A stretch of DNA of 64,000 nucleotides from assembly GCF_900660575.1 (NCBI RefSeq), contig NZ_LR215008.1, positions 887,508 through 951,507 on the forward strand, read 5' to 3'. The notes beneath the pieces were generated by a model that was not told the DNA's origin, made no database searches, and worked only from the letters and a program-made list of their open reading frames with translations. Made by a program: the position numbers and the translations under genes. Shown one piece after another: positions 1-28,003 of the stretch. How positions within the stretch are numbered: the stretch's first letter is position 1; each line of letters begins with the position of its first letter. Source of the stretch: Mycoplasmopsis pulmonis. GTDB taxonomy: Bacteria > Bacillota_I > Bacilli_A > Mycoplasmatales > Metamycoplasmataceae.

Positions 1-2510
1 AATCTAATTAATTCATTAATTGTTTCATATCATTTTTGTAAGTCAAAATTTGGATATTCAAATGCTTCTCAAAATTTATGATATTTAGGAATTGTTCTTA
101 CAAGTTGAGTCAAGATTAATTTTTTAACAGCTGCAGTTGGTCTAAAGTAAAAATCAAGTTCATCTTTAATAATTTTTTCAGTGCTTTCAAAATCACCTGA
201 TTGGAGAATTAGATCATGGTTTTGTTTCAAGGTTTTATAAAAATTAACAAATAGTTTTGTATCAGGTCACAATTTAAAGAATTTTTCTTTAGTATTTCAA
301 ACTAGAGGAACATGTTTGAAGTCATTAATATTTTTAACACTAAAAATTTTAAAAATTGCAGAACTTAGTTTTTGGTAATTATCTAAAGAAATAATATTTT
401 TAGGACTTATCAATTTTGCTTGAGTAGGAAGATCTACTAAAACTTCAATTCTTTGTTCAGAGGCTTCTTTTTTTATTTTTTCTAAAGAACCAGCTAAGTG
501 CATTGTTGAATTATTTTTTAAGAAAATTGCAGAAGAACCAAAAGGATTAATAAGAGCATTATTTGAAATTTGAATTTTAGAATTATCAATTTCAAAAAGA
601 ATGCTTTTAACTGATGCATTATTTACAATGCTTCCACTATTAAAATTAATGTTAGCCTTCTCCAAATTAATTAGAGAAGATCTAAAACTTTTGTTTCCAT
701 CAATTGATCCACCAGAAATAGCTATATTTCCTTGGCTATAAATAATTCCTTTGTCTCCAGTTGAAATATTATCTCTAATTTCTCCGTTTTTAAAAGTTAA
801 AGAAGAGCCAACATGATTTCTAATTATCCCTCCAGATTCAGAGACGTTGTTTCAAATTTTAGCTCCCTCGATTACAACACTTCCATAATTTTCAAAAACA
901 GATCCATATTTACTAAAACTTTTAGAGTTTATAAAAGCTGTTCCCGTTTTTGCAACTAATTTAGCGTTTTTTTCAATTTTTACCAAAGAAGATTCATCTT
1001 TAAAACTAGTTCCAAGACCATTTAAATTAATGCTTTGACTTGAGGGCTCAGCTATTTCAAAAGTCAAGGCTCCTTTTTGAACAATAAACATTGTAAAGCT
1101 TTTTGATGAATCTTTTCTTGTAATGGTTACATTAGATTTTGCAAAAATAGTTATGTTTTTATCTACAACAATACTTTTGTCTAATTTTAAATTTTTATTT
1201 AGAAAGATTTTTTGTCCATCTTGAGCATTTGAAATTGCATCTTGAAGAGTTGGATAAGCAATTTCTACACCTTCTTTTTCAACATAAATTTCTGGTTTTA
1301 ACTCATTAATTAGTCCCATTTTTGCTTTGCTTAACTCTAGATTTTCAGGAGCTTCAGGAAAATATCTACTTAAAATATGATTAATTAATTGAGTAATTTT
1401 TGCACTTTGATCTTTTGAAAAAAGTAATCCTTTAGCTTTGCTTTTAAGTTCACGTGATTTAATAAAAGCAGCAACTTTATCTACAATTTCTCCAGTTTTA
1501 ATAATTTCATTTTTTTCTAAATATTGCTTATGCAAGGCTTGAATTTCAACCAAAGCATCTAATTTTTCTAAAAAATACTTATATATTTCATTTTCAAAAT
1601 TATTACTAAATCATTTTTTATCTTTTAAATTTGATTCATTATTTTTTTTAATATATTCATCATTAGTTAAAAAGATTTTATTTGTTTGATAAGTATCTTT
1701 GATGGTTGAAGCCATTTTAAATAGATCTTTAATTTTTTCAATATATTGCTCAAATGAAAAATCAGCAAAAGTTTTATCTAAAGTTATCTCATCAACTTTT
1801 TTATCATAATTTATTTTTGATTCTTTAAGTTTTGAAACTATTTCTTTGAAATAAAATTCAAAACTACCATCTTTGACAGCCTCTTGTTTATTAAAAGACA
1901 AAACATTTTTAAGTTCTTTTTCTTCCTTGTTTGAATTATTCGGTTTATCTAGATCTTGTTGAGTATTTTCGCTTTCTAAAATATTTTGAGTTTGTAAATT
2001 GGCAGAGTGTTCCTCTTTGTTATTTAGAGTTTGCAATTTCTTTGATTGTTCATTTTTAATATTTGAGATATTTGATTTTTGTGAGTTTTTAAGATGATCT
2101 TGGCTTGTATCTAAATTTTGTGATTTTGCTGATGGCTTGTCTTTAGTATTTTTGGTATTTTTAGCTTCTAAAATGCGAAAGTTTTTTTCTTCATTATTTA
2201 CACTAGTTCCAACTTGTGATTCTGCTAACTCTTTGCTTTTGGTATTTTTTGCATCTTGAGTTTGTAGACCACTAGATTGTTCTTGCCTAGTAGCTGTCTT
2301 AGTTGATTTTTGTAATCCTAATGCTTCTTTGTTTGTGGTATTTGAATTACCTAAAGTTTTTGCGTTATTCTTTAGTTCATTTGCAACTTTAGAATTTTCA
2401 TTGCTAAAGTTAGTTTGATTTGATAATTGCCTCTTGCTTTTTGTATTTGTTATATCAATGCCCGTGCATGAAACAAGAACTGCAAGAGTTAAAACAATCC
2501 CTGAAAACAT
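1..2510 (-). CDS. Beta-helix-type surface lipoprotein (3' end outside window)
   Basis: The frame is open from 2510 to the window edge when TGA is read as Trp, with no TAA or TAG in the parts I walked, so the C-terminus is missing. The start of the frame encodes a hydrophobic stretch ending in LAVLVSC, a lipobox, so the product should be a lipid-anchored surface protein. Roughly residues 20-210 are low-complexity, rich in K, N, Q, S, T and E, with recurring LQTQ and AKNTK units. Then follow a helical part and, from about residue 400, short turns such as NGLGTSF and GSVVIEGAKI that resemble a parallel beta-helix. The second half is closely related to the gene at 2842-6008. The only start with a good Shine-Dalgarno is out of frame (see 2526-2560); the nearest in-frame ATG, at 2510, lacks one. 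Exact role is unknown; adhesion or immune evasion is a guess. Confidence 0.75.
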
Positions 2511-2525
2511 TAATACACTTAATGT

Positions 2526-2560
2526 AATTTTTTTATTTTTTTCATATTTTTCCTTTTATA
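2526..2560 (-). promoter_or_regulatory. Start region with two A7 tracts: candidate phase switch
   Basis: On the minus strand an AAAAGGA Shine-Dalgarno precedes an ATG (2545-2543), followed by seven A, one T and seven A. Read from this ATG the frame stops at TAA after eight codons. One extra A in either tract would join ATG-AAA-AAA to the lipobox frame and give a normal Lys-rich signal peptide. As sequenced the lipoprotein looks switched off or is initiated elsewhere. A slippage switch is inference; a sequencing error in a homopolymer gives the same picture. Confidence 0.55.
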
Positions 2561-2841: not shown

Positions 2842-5800
2842 TTAAAACACAAGTCCATTTAAGAACGAAACACCTGTAATGATAAGGTCAGCTGCTGCAA
2901 CTAAAATGGAAATTAAAGGATTACTTCATGAAGTAGCTGCAGCTCCAAGTTGCAATACAAGTTTAACACTTTGGAAGGCTTTGACAACTGCTAGAATTTT
3001 TCAAAACATTGCTGTTGCACCCCCTACAGCTGTTATAGCTGCTCGTCCTTTGTTTGCCAAGTCTGAATAGGTAATATTTTTAATTTTATCTCAGTCTTTA
3101 CTATTAAATATTGACTTCTAATAACTCCTCCTTGAATAAACAATGTTGTTGCGGTTATTGCACTACCAATTGCACTAGGAATAAATGCAGGTCCTACAAA
3201 AAATGAAGCAACACCAAAACCAATTGCCATTGCAGTTGCAGTTCCTACAAAAATAAAGCTTTTTTCACTCATCAATCATAGACTATTTGCAAATGATTCT
3301 AAGGTTTTTGTTTTTCGATCGATTACTTCAAATTCATCTGCACCAATTATTTCGATAGGAGGATGTTTAAGGAATTGTTTTACTAAAAATGGACTATAAA
3401 AGCTAGTACTTATTTTTTTCATGAAAGCTCCAAGACCAGCTTCATCTTTATTTGTAACATGCTTAGTTATTTCATTTTTATTAAAAATCATTAAATTTTT
3501 AAGAGTTGTAAATGAATCTTTATTAATTATTTTAAATTTAGATTCTAAATGGGCAGCTTCTAAAATGACTGCTTTTGAATTTTGATCATCAATGAAACTA
3601 AAATGATCAAAGATTTTTGTTGAAAGATCCAATGATTTTTCAGGATTTAGTTTTAATACTTCTTTACTATGAGTAAAATCTCTAATAATTACATTTACAA
3701 TAGGTGCATCTTTGATAAAATGATTTTTTAAATCATCATGAACTTCAAGAGATGAATTATTTGATAAAATGATGTGTTTTACAAACTCTCGACCAAGGTA
3801 TGTATCTTTGAATAAGTGAAGCTTTCCATTTTTAAACATTTGAACTGCGTTTCTGTCTAAAGAGAAATTAGCTTCAAGAGATGCATTAAGTCAAGTTTCA
3901 TCATTTGATCAAATTAACCCATTACCCTCTGTTTGGTTATAGATGATTTTTCCACCCATTAATTTCAATTTACCAACATGGTTATAAATAATTGCAGCAT
4001 CACTTTTAGCTCTATTATTTGCAATGATTCCATCTAAGAACTCAAATTCTCCATCTTCATTTCTTAAAACAGAAGCGCTTTGTGAATAGTTATTTGCGAT
4101 TTTAGCTCCATCAATGAGAATTTTTCCTGAATTTAAAAAGAGAGCAAAATGCGAAGCTGAAGAGTAAGCATTGACAAAACTAATACCTTTTTTAGCAGTC
4201 AATTTTGCCCCTTGACTTACACTAACTAAAGCTGAATTTTTAACGTCAACTCCTAGTCCATTGATTGCTAAAGAGTGTTTTGCGGGATTTGAAATTTCTA
4301 AAGTTAATTCTCCTCCTTGAAGCACTTCCAAAATGGCAAAAGAATGACTTGGATATTTTCTTGTAATGTTTACATTTTTAAAAGTAGTGAAGCTAATTTT
4401 TTTATTAATTCTTAAAGAGTTTTCAATTTCAACATTTTCATTGACAATGATTGTCTCGTTTTCTTGAGCTTCATCAATTGCAGCTTGTAAAGAAATATAT
4501 TCTTTATAGTCATCGCCTTTTTTGATGAAAATACCTTCTTTGTCATAAGCTTTTTGCCCTTGATTTGACTCAGATCAATTTTTAGGCTTTCCAAAAGCTT
4601 CGCTTAAATCAACGCCTTTGTCGTTCATTCTAGATGAAAGCATACTCTCTCCAGAATAAACAACATTTATTGATTCTGTTTCAGTTAAAAAATCCAAAAT
4701 TTGATCTTTAAATCTAAACTCATCAGTCAAGTAACCTTTGTTATATTGTCGATTTTCATATAAGTACCCATGGATTTTTGTTCAAATTTTTGTTACTTCT
4801 TCATTACTAAAATATTCATGAACAGGATTAACCGAATGTGTATCTTTAGGTTTTTGTAAAATCATTCCATCTTCAATGAATTGAGAATAAGCAATATCAA
4901 ATAAATATGGAAATTCCATACCAATTAATGAATTAATTGATCTAAATTGATTTTCTAAATTAGAATTATTTTTAAAAGCTTTTCAAAATGAATGATGTTT
5001 AGGTAGTGCTCTTGCAAGTTGAGTGAAGATTAATTTCTTAACAACTAAAGTTGGTTTGAAGAAATGATTCACTTCATCTTTGATAACTTTTTCAGTACCT
5101 TCAAAATTACCTGATTTAATAACTTCATCATGTTTTTGTTTCAATATTTTATAAAAATCTACAAATAGTTTTGTATCCGGTCACAATTTAAAGAAATTCT
5201 CTTTGTTATTTCAAACTAGAGGAACATGTTTGAAATCATTAAGATTTTTAACACTAAAAATTTTAAAAATTGTTGATTTTAATTCATGGTAACTTTCTAA
5301 AGAAATAAGATCTCTAGGAATTACATATCTTGAATCAGTAGGAAGATCAACTAAAACTTCAATTCTTTGTTCAGAAGCTTCTTTTTTTAATTTTTCTAAA
5401 GAACCAGCTAAGTGCATTGTTGAGTCATTTTTTAAGAAAATTCCTGAAGAACCATAAGGATTAATTAGAGTATTTGAAATTTGGATTTTTGAATTGTCCA
5501 TTTCAAAAAGAATATTTTTAACCGATGCATTAGCTTTAATACTTCCGCTTTCAAGACTAGTCTTAGAATTAGGGTTTTCTACATTAATTAAAGAAGAGCC
5601 AAAACTTTTATTCAACTCAATTAATCCACCAGAAATAGTTAAATTTCCTTGGTTATAAATAATTCCTTTGTTTCCAGTTGAAATATTGTTTCTAATTTCT
5701 CCATCTTTAAAAGTTAAAGAAAATTCACTATGATTTTTAATTACTCCTCCAGATTCAGAGACATTATCTAAAATTTGAGCTCCCTCAATTACAACACTTC

Positions 5801-6008
5801 CATAATTGTCTAAAACAGACACACTATTTCCTATAGCATTTGAGTTTACAAATTTGGTTCCGGTCTTTGCAATTAATTGAGCATCTTTTTCAATTTTGAC
5901 TAAAGAAGCCTCACCTTCAAAACTAGTTCCAAGACCATTTAAACTAATGCTTTGAGTTTTTACATCATCTACTTCAAAAGTCAAAGTTCCTTTTTTAATA
6001 ACAAACAT
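2842..6008 (-). pseudogene. 5'-truncated, 3'-frameshifted beta-helix surface-protein copy
   Basis: One frame is open from 6008 to the TAA at 3033 (about 991 codons with TGA as Trp). It has no signal peptide, lipobox or ribosome-binding site and begins abruptly at MFVIKKGTLTFE, which matches the interior of the gene at 1-2510. That point sits against the terminator of the upstream MATE gene. Inside, the beta-helix module occurs twice: near 5930-6008 and again near 4240-4500 (SLAINGLG). At the 3' end the frame stops at 3033, but the minus-1 frame continues from about 3120 to a TAA at 2842 and encodes two hydrophobic segments rich in A, V, L and I that would complete a membrane anchor. The gene is therefore damaged at both ends and is probably a silent pseudogene or recombination donor. 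Confidence 0.75.
4920..6008 (-). repeat. Diverged duplicate of 1-1091 (surface-protein module)
   Basis: The 4920-6008 segment and the 1-1091 segment encode the same protein stretch in the same orientation, with long near-identical blocks such as EASEQRIEVLVDLPT and STMHLAGSLEK. Similarity is obvious at DNA level, for example the shared run around 5211-5240 and 297-326. Such a direct repeat could support homologous recombination that swaps variable parts between the two copies. Confidence 0.7.
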
Positions 6009-7629: not shown

Positions 7630-9582
<1,953 letters not shown>

Positions 9583-11123: not shown

Positions 11124-12411
11124 TAAACTAGGACAAAAAAAGTGACTATTTAAAAAACACTTAGAACATCTCAGCTTTGTTGAGGTGTTTTTCATTCTAA
11201 GATTGATTGTAATCTTTCATTATTGTATCAGTCAATATAATTTTGAATAATTTCTTGCAATTCTTTGAATGATAATTTTGAAATTTTTAGATCATTTAAG
11301 CACTCACTTTTGATATTTGAAAAGAAATATTCTGCTTCTCGATTATCAAGTGAATTTGCGATTCTACTCATTGAAATTATCCCATTGTTTTCTTTAATAA
11401 TTTCACTATACTGATTTGATGAATATTGACTTCCATGATCTGAGTGAATTATTCACTCTTTATCAAATTTGATTTTAGAAATATGATCTAAAACTAACTT
11501 AACATCATTTCTTTTACTTAGATTTCAATTAATTATTTTCTTGCTTTGATGATGAATTGCAATCGATAAATAAACATGATTGTTAATTGCATCTTTGGGG
11601 CTTGGAATATAAGTTACATCAGTGGCAACTATGTTGTTAAATTTGCCATTGTAGTCTCTTTGAATTAGATTTTGATATTTAGTATTAAGATTTTTAATTT
11701 CATTTTTTCTTTTTGCTCTTCTAATTTTGCAAAAAAGATTTAATTTAAGCAAAATTCTACCTATTTTTCGATAGTTTATATACCTTTTATATTTATTTTG
11801 AATATAAATTTCTAATCTTTTTCTACCAAATATACCTTTGTTTTCATGAAATGATTTTCTAATAATTTCTTCAATTTCTTGATCTTTTTTCGGCTCTGCA
11901 AGTTTAGGTTTTTTTCAAGAATAATATGTTGATTTTGAAAAGAGAAATTCTTTTCATGAAATTTTAGTTAATATTTTTTCTTTATCTTTATGTTCTTTAA
12001 TTTTTTTTCGAATTTCTTTTTCACTAATGTCATCAAAAATTATTCTATAAATTTTAACAATCTCTTCTAATTCTTCTCTTGTATATTCATTAACTTCTTT
12101 TCTTTTTGGTGGTCTACCGTTATTTTTTTTGTTAGCTGTAGATTTGCCAGTTTGTGAAATTAAAGATTGTTCATCTTTTTGAAAAGCAGAATATTTTTTG
12201 AAAAATCAAGATTTTACATATGTATTTTTTCAATCTTTACCAATATTTTTGTTTACTAAAAATATATATTTTTTTATATTAATTTTTCCATCATAAAATT
12301 CTTCATATAATGAAAATCATTTCTTTCATTGTTCTGGTTTTAGTTGTTTCATAAACACTCCTATTTAAAGTATATTTTAAAAAGTGTTTTTTATTTTTTT
12401 GTCCCAGTTTA
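11124..12411 (-). mobile_element. IS3-family insertion sequence, IS1138-like, 1288 bp
   Basis: The ends are inverted repeats: TAAACTAGGACAAAAAAA on the left and the complement of TAAACTGGGACAAAAAAA on the right, 18 bp with one mismatch. A 3-bp direct repeat CTT flanks the element (11121-11123 and 12412-12414). The length of 1288 bp and the single transposase frame agree with what I recall of IS1138 from Mycoplasma pulmonis. Clean ends and an intact frame suggest recent insertion. Confidence 0.9.
11150..12352 (-). CDS. IS3-family transposase (single ORF)
   Basis: A 400-residue DDE transposase that moves the surrounding element. The N-terminal third is a basic, helix-turn-helix-like region (KKYIFLVNKNIGKDWKN). 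The integrase core has VATDVTYIP (Asp245), HSDHGSQYSS (Asp305) and SLDNREAEYFF (Glu341), giving the D-D-35-E spacing of the IS3 group. Unlike many IS3 elements, no separate orfA and orfB with programmed frameshifting is needed; the frame is continuous. ATG at 12352 has an AGGAG just upstream in the terminal region. All catalytic residues are present, so it is probably active. Confidence 0.92.
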
Positions 12412-13555
12412 CTTTTTGTTCTTGTTTTTATTTTGAATTGAAGTGTTGGAATTATTGTTTTATTCTTAGCTTTGATTATATATTTTGTCTTCAAAAAAAT
12501 ATTTCAAAAAAATATTTCATTAACAGAACAAAAAATCATAATAAAACAAAAATTTAATCAAAAACTCTTATCTTCATTAAATAGCTTTAAAGCTTTTTAT
12601 TTTTTAGATAAAACTAATACATGAATTCAAAAAAACAAAGAGTTATTTTTAACCAATAAAATTTCAACACAAAAACTTGATACAAAACAAAATCTTATTA
12701 TTTGGGTTTATGTTTTTGGTATTGTAATTTTTGAAATGATTCCTTTTGCAATATTAATAGTTTATTTCTTAAATGATTTTTTCAATGTTGATATTGGAAT
12801 TTTAATTACAATTCCAATTATTGTAAAAAGTATATTTTTTGAAATTGTTGAAATATATCGTTCAGAACCTAGTTTTAAATTTGCAATTGATAATTTTAAA
12901 AGCATAAACATACTCAACAAAAATGAGTACAAAGATGAAAAAATTATAAAAGAATTTGAGATTTTAGAAATTGAAAATTTGCAATTTAAACATTTAAAAA
13001 ATTTAAAAAAAATAAATCAAAAAATTTACAAAAATCAAAAAATTTTAATAGTGGGGAAATCAGGTATAGGTAAAAGTACAATTGTAAAAAGTTTGTTAAG
13101 TATAAACCAAGATTATGAAGGAAAAATATTATTTAATAATCAAAAACTGTCAGTAAATCAAAATATAAAAATAATAAATTTCATTGATAACAATTCATTT
13201 ATTTTCAACTCTTCATTAAAAAATAATTTAACTCTTTTTAATGAAAAAATTACCAATGAAAAGATCACAAAAAGTTTAGAACTAGTTGAATTAAAAGATA
13301 AGCTTCACAATTTAGAAGATGGCGTAAATGAAATGTCTTTAAGTGAAGGAGAAAAACAAAAAATTGCTCTTGCAAGGTTTTTCTTAAATAGAAAAGATTT
13401 TTTAATTTTAGATGAGGCTTTTTCAAGCATTGATAAAAAATCAACAAATTTGATTAGAAAAAAATTGTTAACAGATAAGGATCTAACATTAATTGAAATT
13501 TCACATAATGTTGATCCTAGTGAATATTCAAAATACGATGAGGTAATAGATTTAG

Positions 13556-15172
13556 ATGCAACTACTTTGAGAAAATAAAAAACTTTTTATAATAAATTTA
13601 TTTTTAATTTTTTTATCATCTTCAGGATTGATTTTGTCTATATATTTTCAATTAACAATTTCAGAAGAGATATTTAATTTTAAATCTTCAGTGTCAGATA
13701 GTCATACAAAAAATAGATTAATAATTTTGCAAATTGTTGCACTTTTAATTTTTACATTTTTTTTATCTATAAAATTTATAAATGCTATTTTTATTGATAA
13801 ACAAAAAAATGAAATAATCTTAAAGATAAGAAATAAAAATATTGAATTTTTTAATTTTTGTTCATATAAACAAATGAAGAATAAAAAAGTTGAAGAACAC
13901 ATTGACAACTTTAGTGATGTTATTGAAAAATTTACAATAGTTAACACAACAGATATCTATGCTTTTGCAAACAATATTATTTCACTTTTAGGCATTTTAA
14001 TTCTTTTTGGTGTGATCATAATCTTTAAAAACTTTTTGTTTTTATATATTTTAATTTTTATAATAGTTGCTATTTTACTTAACTGACTTTTGCCTTATTT
14101 TTTCAACAAAAAAGAATTGAAATACAAAGATAAATTAATTGAATATAGACAAAGAAATTTATCTCAAACAACTGATTTAATTGATAATTACAAAGCTTTT
14201 TTATGAAATAAATCATCTAGTTATTTTGATAGAGAATATTTCAAAATAATTAGAAAATTTAACATTGAAAATCATAAGTTATTTATTAAAAATAAGTTTA
14301 TAGAATCTATAAAAGAAATCTCACTAGAAATTACAAAATACATTCCTATTTTAGTTGCTATTTTTCTTGTAATTGCAGATCCTGTAAATCTAGGAACTTT
14401 AGTTGTTATTAATTTTATCTTTGTGGAGATAAAATCAATTCAAGAAATGATAATAAATAACTACACAAGTATTAAAAGTAGAAATGTATTTTTAAAATAT
14501 TTAAGTTTTTATCAAAATATCAAAAGTGAAAATTTAACCAAAATATATGATTCAATAGACAACATAGAATTTAAAAATTCTAGTTTCGCTTTTGATGAAA
14601 AAGTAATTTTTAATAACTTAAATATTAAGTTTAGAAAAAATGAAAAATATCTTATTGAAGGTCCTTCTGGATCAGGAAAATCTACATTAATAAAACTAAT
14701 ATTAAAGGAAATAACTTCACAAAATCAAAGCATATTAATTAATGATAAAAACATCAATAATATTGATAGAAAATCGATTATTGAAAATATTATATTTTTA
14801 GATAACAAAGTAATAATTTTAAATGAAGATTTGCAAAGTAATATCAGCTTACTTGAAGATAAAATTATCCTTGAAAAGTACTTAGATATTTCAAAAAACT
14901 TTAATATAAATTTTGAAGATCTTTTATCTCTTTCTGAAGGCGAAAAACAAATTTTAAATATAGCAAGGATAATTTATCATGCCAGTGATAACAAGTGAAT
15001 AATTTTTGATGAATCCATGTCTAACATAGATAAGAAGATGAAAGATAAAATTGAAAATTATTTCTTAGATATGAAAAATACAACATTTATAAATATCTCT
15101 CATAATCCTTCAATGTCAAATAGAGATAAATATAGTCAAATATTTAATATTAAAAACTTAAAAAATTTATAG
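13556..15172 (+). CDS. ABC exporter subunit (membrane + ATPase domains)
   Basis: A 538-residue half-transporter. The first 320 residues are hydrophobic and form the membrane domain. The C-terminal ATPase domain has Walker A EGPSGSGKSTL, signature LSLSEGEKQ, Walker B IIFDESMSNID and switch NISHN. ATG 13556 overlaps the end of the preceding ABC gene by 23 bp and is preceded by GAGGTAA, implying translational coupling. The two proteins have nearly the same length and architecture and probably form a heterodimer. Sequence is extremely A/T-rich. The cargo is not evident: no precursor peptide or accessory gene lies beside it. Its partner is broken by the IS, so function may be lost unless it can homodimerise. 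Confidence 0.85.
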
Positions 15173-15218: not shown

Positions 15219-16682
15219 TTAAAGACTTTGATTATTAAATCCTTTTGGAAAAAGATGAGTTTTAAAATTTGAATCAATTTTTTTAATATTTTTTAATGAA
15301 TCTTTGTATGATTTTTTTTGTTCTTTTCCACCACCATAAATTAGATCATATTGTGGAATAAAATAATTTCTATATCAAAATGAAGGTAAGCCTTGTACTT
15401 TGAAACCTTCTGATTTAAAAGCTACTGATCCTGTTAGTCCAGAAAGATCAGAACCTAGAGCATGGATTCCTACAATTTTGTTATTTTTATCAACAGTTTT
15501 AGATCCACTTGATCCACCACTTAAGGCAGTATTTCTAAAGTAGTAAAGTAATCCAGAATAATAATATTTTTGACCTCAAATATTTAATGTTGTTCCTTTG
15601 AAAAATGCAGATGAATCCACAATTCCTTTTTTACCAAACATGCTATTGTTTTCAAATTCTGAAAGCATAGCTCCTTTTTCATAAATTTTGGCATCCAATC
15701 CTTCAACTGTATCTTCAACTGGTTTGTTAATTGATGGTACTAAAGCTCTTATTTGATTTTCTTTTCTAATTCCATCTTCATTTCTTTCAGTAGGATCTGG
15801 ATATCCCGAAATGTAATAATAATTATTTGTTGTTTGTAAATAATCTTTTAAAAGTGAATCTTTAATAAAATTATTTTTATCTTTTTCTTCTCACAAAGCA
15901 TAATCTGAAGTAAATTTTCTAGCTTCAGCTTCATTTTGGAATTTAATTTCAAATACTGCAAAGTCAATAATTTCTTCATAACTTGCTAAATCTCTAAAAT
16001 AATCATTTGGCTTTGTTGTTAGATAATCATTACCCATGAAAACCAATTTCACATTTTTTCTCGGCACTGTTAATGTGTTTTCAGGTTTATCATCATTTTC
16101 AATTTTTTGAATATTAGTTCCTGTTTTTTTTAAGTCTCATCTTCTTAGATAAACCTCTTCAGTTTCACCTCTAAAATATTTTGTTGATTCAGGAAAATCT
16201 CTTGAACTAAAATATGTTGCAACATGAGCATTGGTTGCAAAATATCATGTAAGCGGATATGATCCATCTTCTGTAAGTTGATAATCTAAAATTCAAGTTG
16301 TTCCTGAAGCTTTAGCTGGCTTTCCATCTTGGTCTATTGCTCCAACTACTGGAATTGAAAGTGAAAGAGAAGTTTTAAAATTATCTTGATAAATTTTGTT
16401 TGGTGCAACATAAGTAGCTGCTGTTTTAGGACTAAAAAGTTGATAAGCTCTACGAGCTGTTTCATCTTCTTCTCTTTCTGGACTACTATTAATTCTTGTA
16501 GAAGCAAAAGAATTACTATTTTTATTGTAATTAACAACTTGATAGCTAGAAGTGTCAATATGACCTAGATTGTCTGTTTTTCCCAAAAGTGTCCATGATA
16601 TTCAAAAAATAAGCCCAACTACTAAAGCTCCACAAATAATTCAAACTAGAAAAAATCAAAATTTATTAGATATTTTTTTCAT
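15219..16682 (-). CDS. DUF31 family chymotrypsin-like serine protease, membrane-anchored
   Basis: A 487-residue protein with one N-terminal transmembrane segment (about residues 8-33) and the rest outside the cell. A chymotrypsin-type triad can be read: His153 in ATNAHVA, an Asp in IIDFAVFEIKF, and Ser392 in LSGGSSGSK, followed by the GIHALGSDLSG strand. This is the mycoplasma DUF31 family, which includes the immunoglobulin-cleaving MIP proteases. No MIB partner is adjacent, so the target may be different. ATG 16682 is the only ATG upstream of the conserved part and gives a proper membrane anchor. It diverges from trpS. Protease assignment is strong; substrate is inference. Confidence 0.85.
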
Positions 16683-16775
16683 AATAAAAAATTTTAACAC
16701 TAAGCAACAAAGATTAAAAGCTGGTTTTTAAAAAATAATTGTATGTTTAAAATTTATTAATTTAAAATTGCTATT

Positions 16776-26273: not shown

Positions 26274-28003
26274 CTATTTTAAAACTCTATATAAAAATCC
26301 ATCAATTACATGTACTTTTTTATCCTTTGAATTAGCTATGGGATTTTTTATTTGGTCAATTCAATTAAGTAATTTAATATCTTGGCTATCTTTTAAATCA
26401 TCTGAATTAGCAAGTATTTCAACTATGCTTTTTTTAGATACTGGAATATATTCAACTCATTTAACTGGAACACTATAAAATCTTCCATTAGCAGCTAATA
26501 CAGAAACATAATCAACTCTATTAACAGTTTTATAACCATAAGCCATTACTTCAAAACTATCAATGTATTCATTTTCACTAGATATATATTTTGTTTTTAA
26601 AATGTTTTGAGTTGATGAGTGTTCATGTTTTAAAAGTTTAACTTCCATTCCATTTGCAAGTGATTCATGTTCATATCATGAATAATTTGCATCATAATTA
26701 TTTTCATAGATGTAATCTTGAGTTTTAAATTGAGCATATAAAGGTATTGATAATAAAGGAGCAAAAGAAAAATAAAGATGCTTAAAGTAATCATTGTTTT
26801 TATTAATAAAATCTGATTTTATTTTTTCAAAACTATAGTGAAAATAATTGTCTTTTCTATGGTCAATATTTAAATCTTCCATGTGAGAAGCTTTTATTTT
26901 GTTGATCATTTTATTTTTAGAAAAATAAAAATCATCTCCATAACCTACTTTGTTATCCAAAATAAGCTCTTGCATTTGTCTTTGTGCAAGTGGAGTAAAA
27001 AGCATTCTATATTCTTTTTCATTGTCTCTATTTAAAGCATTAAATAAAACCTCAAAATCATTGTTGCCAAGGAAGTAAATCCACTATTTTCTTTTTCCAA
27101 TTTTGATAAATTTTTAGTTGATGATTTAATGATTTTTTCAACTTGCCATTGGTTTTTTAAATGCATGTTTGAGGCATATCTTGAAAATGATAAATTAGGA
27201 GCTGCTTCACTAGCAAATATAAGAGTTTTGTCACTTTTATAAAATGGACAAGGTTTTTTTAAAGTTGCTACTAAAGTTTGGGTGTGTGTAGTGTTATCTT
27301 TTGTTCTATATCTAATTGTTTTTGTTCCTTTATAAACCTTTGTTCCTAATTCATGATTTAATTCTTGAACAATAAAAAAGGGATTGCCTAATATCTCTCC
27401 TGAATATACTTTTTGAATTGATGTGTTATTGTCATAATTTTGACTTTGGAAGTTATATTTATTAACTAAAAGAGACATTTTTTTGTTTGAAAAATAATCA
27501 TCAAAATGCACAATTTCAAAAGTTTTTGAAAATAATTGATTAGCCATTTTAGGTTCAAGAAGTTTACTCAAAGGTGCCATCTTTTTTATTAGTTCATTTT
27601 CTTTTTTTTCTACTGCTTTTTGGAAGTTTAAAATTTGTGATTTAAGTTGGTTAATTTTAAAATTAACAAAGATAATAATACCTAGTGAAATTAAAATAAT
27701 AGAAACTGAAATTGCAATTACTGCTACAGTTGTATATACAAGAAGAATTACCAAAGAAATAAAAGGAATAACAAGAAGAAAAAACACTAAAAATTTATAA
27801 GATTTTACAGAACTTTCATAACTAGCTAATTTTTCTTTTTCTTCTAGTAAAAGTTTATTTTCTTGAATGTTTTCTTCAATATTAATATTAGAGTCTTTAA
27901 CTAATTTATCAAAAAGATCTACTACATTTTTATTGTGTTTTTCTTTATAAACACTATTATATTTTTGCACTAAATCACTTAGTTCAATTTCTTGTGATCT
28001 CAA
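26274..28003 (-). pseudogene. DUF3137-like membrane protein with a frameshift
   Basis: The first frame runs from 28003 to TAA at 27032 (323 residues): a coiled N-terminus, two adjacent membrane helices at about residues 68-113, then a domain ending at NSGFTSLATM. The minus-1 frame continues from about 27070 (GNNDFEVLFNAL, MLFTPLAQRQMQEL) to TAG at 26274. Together they give the F-x-x-x-F ... LLTP pattern of DUF3137 proteins, so a single-base change near 27065-27085 has split one gene. TTG at 28003 is the only usable start. It follows lemA, a common pairing in mycoplasmas, but with a terminator between. Function is unknown. A sequencing error is an alternative explanation. Confidence 0.7.

What the first reader, a model, noticed from the sequence alone, without database searches (positions are those of the whole stretch)
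2526..2560. Homopolymer switch at the start of a surface lipoprotein
The only start codon with a Shine-Dalgarno is followed by A7-T-A7 and is one base out of phase with the lipobox. Adding one A would give a perfect lipoprotein signal peptide. Coding-tract slippage is a known route to phase variation in mycoplasma surface proteins. Here the sequenced cell would be in the OFF state.
Basis: partly seen in the sequence, partly recalled or inferred. Interest (0 to 1): 0.7.

Follow-up and report, generated by a model that had tools for sequence, protein, structure and literature searches.

The report
Out-of-frame poly-A start, surface lipoprotein
In this mycoplasma genome a long gene for a predicted surface lipoprotein starts one base out of frame at two runs of A, likely the OFF position of a reversible on/off switch of a kind already known in other mycoplasmas.

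Summary
On the minus strand, AGGA and ATG (window 2545-2543) are followed by A7-T-A7 (2542-2528). That frame stops after 8 codons, while a long lipobox frame (1534 codons from ATG 2510, ending outside the window) is one base out of register. The sibling gene next downstream has a closely similar signal peptide, with A8-T-A6, in register; a homologue in another genus has A8-T-A8, in register. A second lipoprotein gene of this genome (C1 about 199.9 kb) is also one base out at its start, and both arms of contig 2, which repeat that stretch, agree. In all, 2 of 22 lipoprotein-like starts in the DNA fetched are out of register. This fits poly(A) slipped-strand phase variation, as published for Vaa of M. 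hominis and P78 of M. fermentans. It does not prove switching: no second strain or read set turned up, contig 2 shows that this assembly's raw data tend to lose single bases in A/T runs, and such runs come free because Lys is AAA 90% of the time. A residual sequencing error, a fixed loss or leaky expression remain open. The protein is a predicted parallel beta-helix protein; a truncated, decayed copy lies upstream. New member of a known kind.

The parts
2551..2554 (-). Shine-Dalgarno-like AGGA
   Evidence: sequence shows directly
2543..2545 (-). ATG start codon of the out-of-register leader frame (8 codons)
2536..2542 (-). first A7 run
2528..2534 (-). second A7 run; in the ATG frame it reads A_AAA_AAA
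   Evidence: heptamer type listed in PMC3711429 (passages)
2519..2521 (-). TAA that ends the ATG frame
   Evidence: frame 0 translation
2508..2510 (-). ATG in the lipobox frame; lines up by eye with an internal Met codon of the in-register sibling; no Shine-Dalgarno-like motif
2466..2468 (-). lipobox Cys codon (LVSC)
1..2510 (-). part in the window of the 1534-codon beta-helix lipoprotein ORF (continues to L006:9414 = G000:C1:885413)
3033..6008 (-). upstream partial copy: no signal peptide and no first ~470 residues
2842..3060 (-). C-terminal piece of that copy in another frame, after a short deletion near 3100
   Evidence: (separate frame, 890352-890636 of C1)

Best explanation
Two poly(A) runs right after the start codon leave a 1534-codon predicted surface-lipoprotein frame one base out of register, and this is likely the OFF state of a reversible slipped-strand (phase-variation) switch. 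Shown: the register break, the intact long frame, the in-register sibling gene and the second out-of-register lipoprotein start. Inferred: replication slippage in the A runs changes their length in a small fraction of cells. Where the frames agree, the protein would be made, lipidated at the Cys and displayed. Where they do not, translation would stop after 8 codons and the surface would lack it. The gene product is predicted to be a lipid-anchored right-handed beta-helix protein.
For: Register break and runs. Rest of the ORF open for 1534 codons. Sibling gene next downstream with a closely similar signal peptide, A8-T-A6, in register. Homologue in G055 with A8-T-A8 in register. Second lipoprotein gene, C1 about 199.9 kb, one base out at A7-GT-A5, with the same letters in both arms of contig 2. 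20 of 22 lipoprotein-like starts in the fetched DNA are in register, with 22-35 codons from start to Cys; ATG 2510 would leave only 14 codons and no Lys. 31 window ORFs hold 110 A/T runs of 7 or 8 bases, and the one gene found split by a frame break among those ORFs is not broken at such a run. Published precedents: vaa is ON at 8 A and OFF at 7 or 9, frequency 10^-3 to 10^-4 (PMC524362, passages); p78 of M. fermentans, 7-base run (PMC2831843, passages).
Against: No length variant of this run was seen. Differences of contig 2 from C1 are mostly single-base deletions in A/T runs (33 of 34 gaps are deletions, 28 of 34 lie in A/T runs of 2 or more), the same kind of change as here, and the two arms probably come from one molecule or one read set, so their agreement at the second gene speaks against a consensus slip but is not a second strain. 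The 110 runs were counted inside open frames, which favours unbroken ones. Frame breaks not at long runs exist elsewhere in C1 (MAG1210-family gene; one lipoprotein copy). Lys is AAA 90% of the time, so the runs need not be a selected switch. dN/dS against the partial copy is 0.48 overall (0.14 to 0.79 by segment), so constraint is uneven. The promoter scan upstream gave no more sites than shuffles (2 found, 3.7 expected).
Confidence: 0.53

Rival explanations
1. Residual assembly error: a base lost in a poly(A) run of a long-read consensus, the gene being in register in the cells.
For: Contig 2 is a fold-back of C1 about 196.5-202.2 kb whose arms carry 16 and 18 one-base gaps against C1, 33 of 34 deletions, 28 of 34 in A/T runs. 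Frame breaks elsewhere in C1 could be errors too.
Against: Among 31 window ORFs with 110 A/T runs of 7 or 8, the one gene split by a frame break is not broken at such a run. The comparable break at 199.9 kb is the same in C1 and both contig-2 arms. Of 12 gene starts at ATG-A7+ with a Shine-Dalgarno-like motif (14 listed, 2 judged internal), only this one is out of register.
Confidence: 0.2
2. Fixed loss: the gene is a young pseudogene that no longer switches, like its partial copy upstream.
For: The neighbouring copy lacks its 5' part and carries a further frame break. Relaxed constraint in parts (dN/dS up to 0.79 in one segment). Frame breaks away from runs occur in other genes.
Against: 1534 codons without a second break. 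The break lies at the slippage-prone runs of the start. The C-terminal segment has dN/dS 0.14.
Confidence: 0.17
3. The allele is expressed anyway at a low level: -1 ribosomal slippage on A_AAA_AAA, RNA polymerase slippage, or a start at ATG 2510.
For: The second run reads A_AAA_AAA in the ATG frame and a -1 slip would enter the lipobox frame; the heptamer is a known slippery type (PMC3711429, passages). The 80 bases behind it fold better than shuffles (z -2.6). 8 of 20 in-register lipoprotein starts lack the Shine-Dalgarno-like motifs sought, so ATG 2510 cannot be excluded on that ground.
Against: A_AAA_AAA occurs in frame 28 times in 16 of 29 window ORFs. The fold is not special: z between -3.5 and 1.35 among 22 lipoprotein starts, 5 of 22 at or below -1.97, target -2.13. 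The second out-of-register gene has no such heptamer. Sibling and G055 homologue are in register and need no slip. A start at 2510 would leave a 14-codon signal without Lys, outside the 22-35 codon range.
Confidence: 0.1

Closest known systems
Vaa adhesin of Mycoplasma hominis (vaa; PMC524362, passages)
   Same: 5' poly(A) run in a surface adhesin gene; 7 versus 8 A decides the frame
   Different: Length change and phase variation are reported there and not shown here; here two runs separated by one T; no sequence relationship was tested
P78 lipoprotein of Mycoplasma fermentans (described in PMC2831843 and PMC3711429, passages; original paper not held)
   Same: 7-base poly(A) run near the 5' end of a lipoprotein gene; a one-base change inactivates it
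   Different: P78 is an ABC transporter subunit; here a predicted beta-helix protein, and the runs lie in the signal-peptide n-region
Hypothetical protein of Mesomycoplasma neurolyticum (P0003)
   Same: Homologue, 42% identity over 99% of query residues 960-1534; a 99% copy lies in G055 with A8-T-A8 at its start
   Different: In register; signal-peptide-like start without a lipobox by my reading

Membership tests
Poly(A) coding-run phase-variable mycoplasma surface proteins (Vaa/P78 kind) | poly(A) run of about 7-8 at the 5' end of the coding region | tested here: met
Poly(A) coding-run phase-variable mycoplasma surface proteins (Vaa/P78 kind) | a one-base length difference decides between full frame and early stop | tested here: met
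   early stop in the ATG frame, 1534 codons in the other; sibling in register
Poly(A) coding-run phase-variable mycoplasma surface proteins (Vaa/P78 kind) | run length varies among cells of one strain | not testable with these tools
   no reads or second strain; protein searches, which scored 7989 and 7990 candidates, gave only this genome and one other species
Poly(A) coding-run phase-variable mycoplasma surface proteins (Vaa/P78 kind) | protein expression follows run length | not testable with these tools
   needs immunoblot or proteomics
Bacterial lipoprotein | n-region with Lys, hydrophobic core, lipobox Cys behind one start | tested here: inconclusive
   all elements present, but the n-region codons are one base out of register with the ATG
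Right-handed parallel beta-helix surface protein | parallel beta-helix fold | tested here: met
Programmed -1 frameshift gene | slippery heptamer in the right frame | tested here: met
   but common in ordinary ORFs
Programmed -1 frameshift gene | frame transition kept in homologues | tested here: not met
   sibling, G055 and G013 homologues start in register

The most novel reading that the evidence does not exclude
The lipoprotein family of this mycoplasma uses its Lys-rich signal-peptide start (A-run, one or two other bases, A-run) as a shared two-run switch: either run can slip, so the same register is reached with different run lengths (A8-T-A6, A8-T-A8) and at any time some members (here 2 of 22 starts) are OFF independently, alongside a separate DNA-inversion-like lipoprotein locus at 622-637 kb.
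Probability: 0.3. Interest if true: 0.5.

Novelty: new member of a known kind. Interest (0 to 1): 0.36.

Why it matters
If run length varies, a mycoplasma for which these searches gave a single genome gains a testable on/off surface protein, and lipoprotein genes filed as broken in AT-rich mycoplasma genomes may be switched off rather than lost. The finding also shows how a poly-Lys signal peptide in an AT-rich genome gives a mutable site for free.

Tried and rejected
Strain comparison: not possible. The genome-contig scan with the lipoprotein found no relative (41 stretches matched a pattern, none confirmed), phages none. The large protein collection gave this genome's own copies plus one Mesomycoplasma neurolyticum protein (only 7989 and 7990 candidates were scored). 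Of 38 genomes searched with the window part of the protein, 2 matched, the own genome and G013. With P0003 as query, 8 of 119 family genomes matched, own genome included. Pfam and NCBIfam: 0 families for the three pieces. Solved structures by sequence: 0 matches.

A special frameshift signal was considered and rejected as the main reading. The promoter scan told nothing. A chance-only origin of the run is not rejected: Lys is AAA in 1050 of 1161 cases.

The contrast between lipoprotein and other gene starts is too small to lean on. Of genes starting with ATG-A7+, 2 of 9 lipoproteins are out of register (this gene and L051) against 0 of 7 others that have a Shine-Dalgarno-like motif (my sorting; 108 distinct sites examined, the genome having 135). 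One search listed 9 sites as possibly out of register. Besides these two, I set aside five (window +17744 and +17777, before a frame with its own ATG; window -17944, inside another frame; L026 and L115, whose long frames have their own ATG). L104 and L119 have no Shine-Dalgarno-like motif and were not followed; L119 lies at the 622-637 kb locus.

The 22 lipoprotein starts are what remains of 27 rows: I dropped four without a signal-peptide n-region or on the wrong strand (window + 39180, L024, L105, L136) and one protein that looks YidC-like to me (name recalled) with an in-frame start further upstream (L044). The scan needed 100 codons of open frame, so the short lipoprotein L127 counts among the 9 but not the 22. 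The fetched DNA is biased towards ATG-A7 sites and this protein family.

Full report
What is there. The window is G000:C1:887508-951507 of a 962,791-base genome in 2 contigs. The GyrB-like protein at 7630-9564 is 69% identical to those of Mycoplasmopsis gallinarum and M. lipofaciens, so the genome is likely a Mycoplasmopsis or close kin; no call named the species. The gene lies on the minus strand: AGGA 2554-2551, ATG 2545-2543, A7 2542-2536, T 2535, A7 2534-2528, TAA 2521-2519. The long frame has a start at ATG 2510 and a lipobox Cys at 2468-2466, and runs 1534 codons to L006:9414 (L006 position = window position + 11508). Upstream of ATG 2510 the long frame stays open through the runs but has no start codon.

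Is the upstream ATG the real start? The sibling gene next downstream (L006:7122-9170) begins ATG-A8-T-A6 and reads MKKNKKLILGVLMFSGIVLTPAILVSC in register; by eye the target's letters behind the runs line up with it codon for codon in the lipobox frame, and ATG 2510 matches an internal Met. In 20 in-register lipoprotein starts the start lies 22-35 codons before the Cys; from ATG 2510 it would be 14, without Lys. A G055 homologue, 99% identical to a Mesomycoplasma neurolyticum protein, starts ATG-A8-T-A8 in register. The G013 homologue is in register with interrupted A runs.

A second case. The lipoprotein at C1 about 198.2-199.9 kb (L051; 40% identical to the sibling over sibling residues 171-680) starts ATG-A7-GT-A5, its first frame stops after 17 codons, and the long frame is one base out in the same sense. 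Contig 2 is a fold-back of C1 about 196.5-202.2 kb: two arms, 99.7% identical to C1, with 16 and 18 one-base gaps (one search also counts 5 and 6 mismatches where BLAST counts 0 and 1). Both arms keep A7-GT-A5, so this break is likely in the DNA and not a consensus slip; the arms may come from one molecule, so this is no evidence on other cells. The neighbouring gene with A7-GT-A7 (L050), in register in C1, has the same letters there in both arms.

How far can error be excluded for the target? In contig 2 the gaps are 33 deletions and 1 insertion, 28 of 34 in A/T runs of 2-7, so the raw data tend to lose bases in such runs. In C1, 31 window ORFs that I chose between 6072 and 55494 hold 110 A/T runs of 7 or 8; being counted inside open frames they lean towards unbroken ones. 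30 of the 31 were scanned against NCBIfam and 27 matched; one gene is split by a frame break, of the MAG1210 family (26274-28003), not at a run of 7, and one ABC transporter gene lacks its 5' part beside an IS3 transposase. A lipoprotein copy at 633.8-635.9 kb is also split, not at a long run. So C1 is not free of frame breaks, true or not, and the target has no second copy to check against.

Selection. Against the partial copy upstream (958 codons) dN 0.14, dS 0.30, ratio 0.48; by segments 0.14 (C-terminus) to 0.79. I read this as a long frame kept until recently, with uneven constraint; the partial copy may itself be under little constraint. It (3033-6008) lacks the signal peptide and the first ~470 residues, and its C-terminal end lies in another frame (2842-3060) after a short deletion that the target lacks.

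Mechanism. I commit to slipped-strand phase variation at the A runs, OFF in the sequenced cell (0.53). Precedent: vaa ON at 8 A, OFF at 7 or 9, 10^-3 to 10^-4 (PMC524362, passages); p78 (PMC2831843 and PMC3711429, passages). PMC2831843 also reports that 7-8-base poly(A) runs lie closer to the 5' end of genes in mammalian pathogens than in other prokaryotes (passage). Rivals: residual error 0.2, fixed loss 0.17, leaky expression by slippage or ATG 2510 0.1. The A_AAA_AAA heptamer and the downstream fold are not special here.

Literature searches for this kind. I saw listings, starts of abstracts and the passages named, not whole papers. I did not search print for this protein, which has no name, so I claim nothing about its absence there.

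Noticed in passing
L137 (G000:C1:622500-637500): Lipoprotein locus with 36-base tandem repeats (27.6 and 50.7 copies) and the motif CATCAAATAATGAACAAA four times, two on each strand, in front of or inside different ORFs, of which only 629214 shows a signal peptide: looks like a DNA-inversion antigen locus of the Vsa/Vpma kind (kind recalled)..
   Followed up: partly
G000:C1 198193-199933 (L051, L136): Second lipoprotein gene one base out of register at its poly(A) start.
   Followed up: yes
G000:C2 (L135): Contig 2 is an inverted fold-back of C1 about 196.5-202.2 kb, likely a long-read artefact that a genome database would count as extra genes.
   Followed up: yes
window 26274-28003: MAG1210-family gene split in two by a frame break not at a long run.
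   Followed up: partly
window 11150-13578: IS3 transposase beside an ABC transporter gene whose 5' part is missing.
   Followed up: no
window 15219-16700: MIP-family Ig-specific serine endopeptidase.
   Followed up: no
L035 1534-1564 (G000:C1 about 88.4 kb): Run of 31 T between two genes that look like an alpha-amylase-type and a SecA-type gene (names recalled).
   Followed up: no
L137, C1 624281-626327 and 633842-635889: Inverted pair of closely similar lipoprotein genes, one intact and one split.
   Followed up: partly
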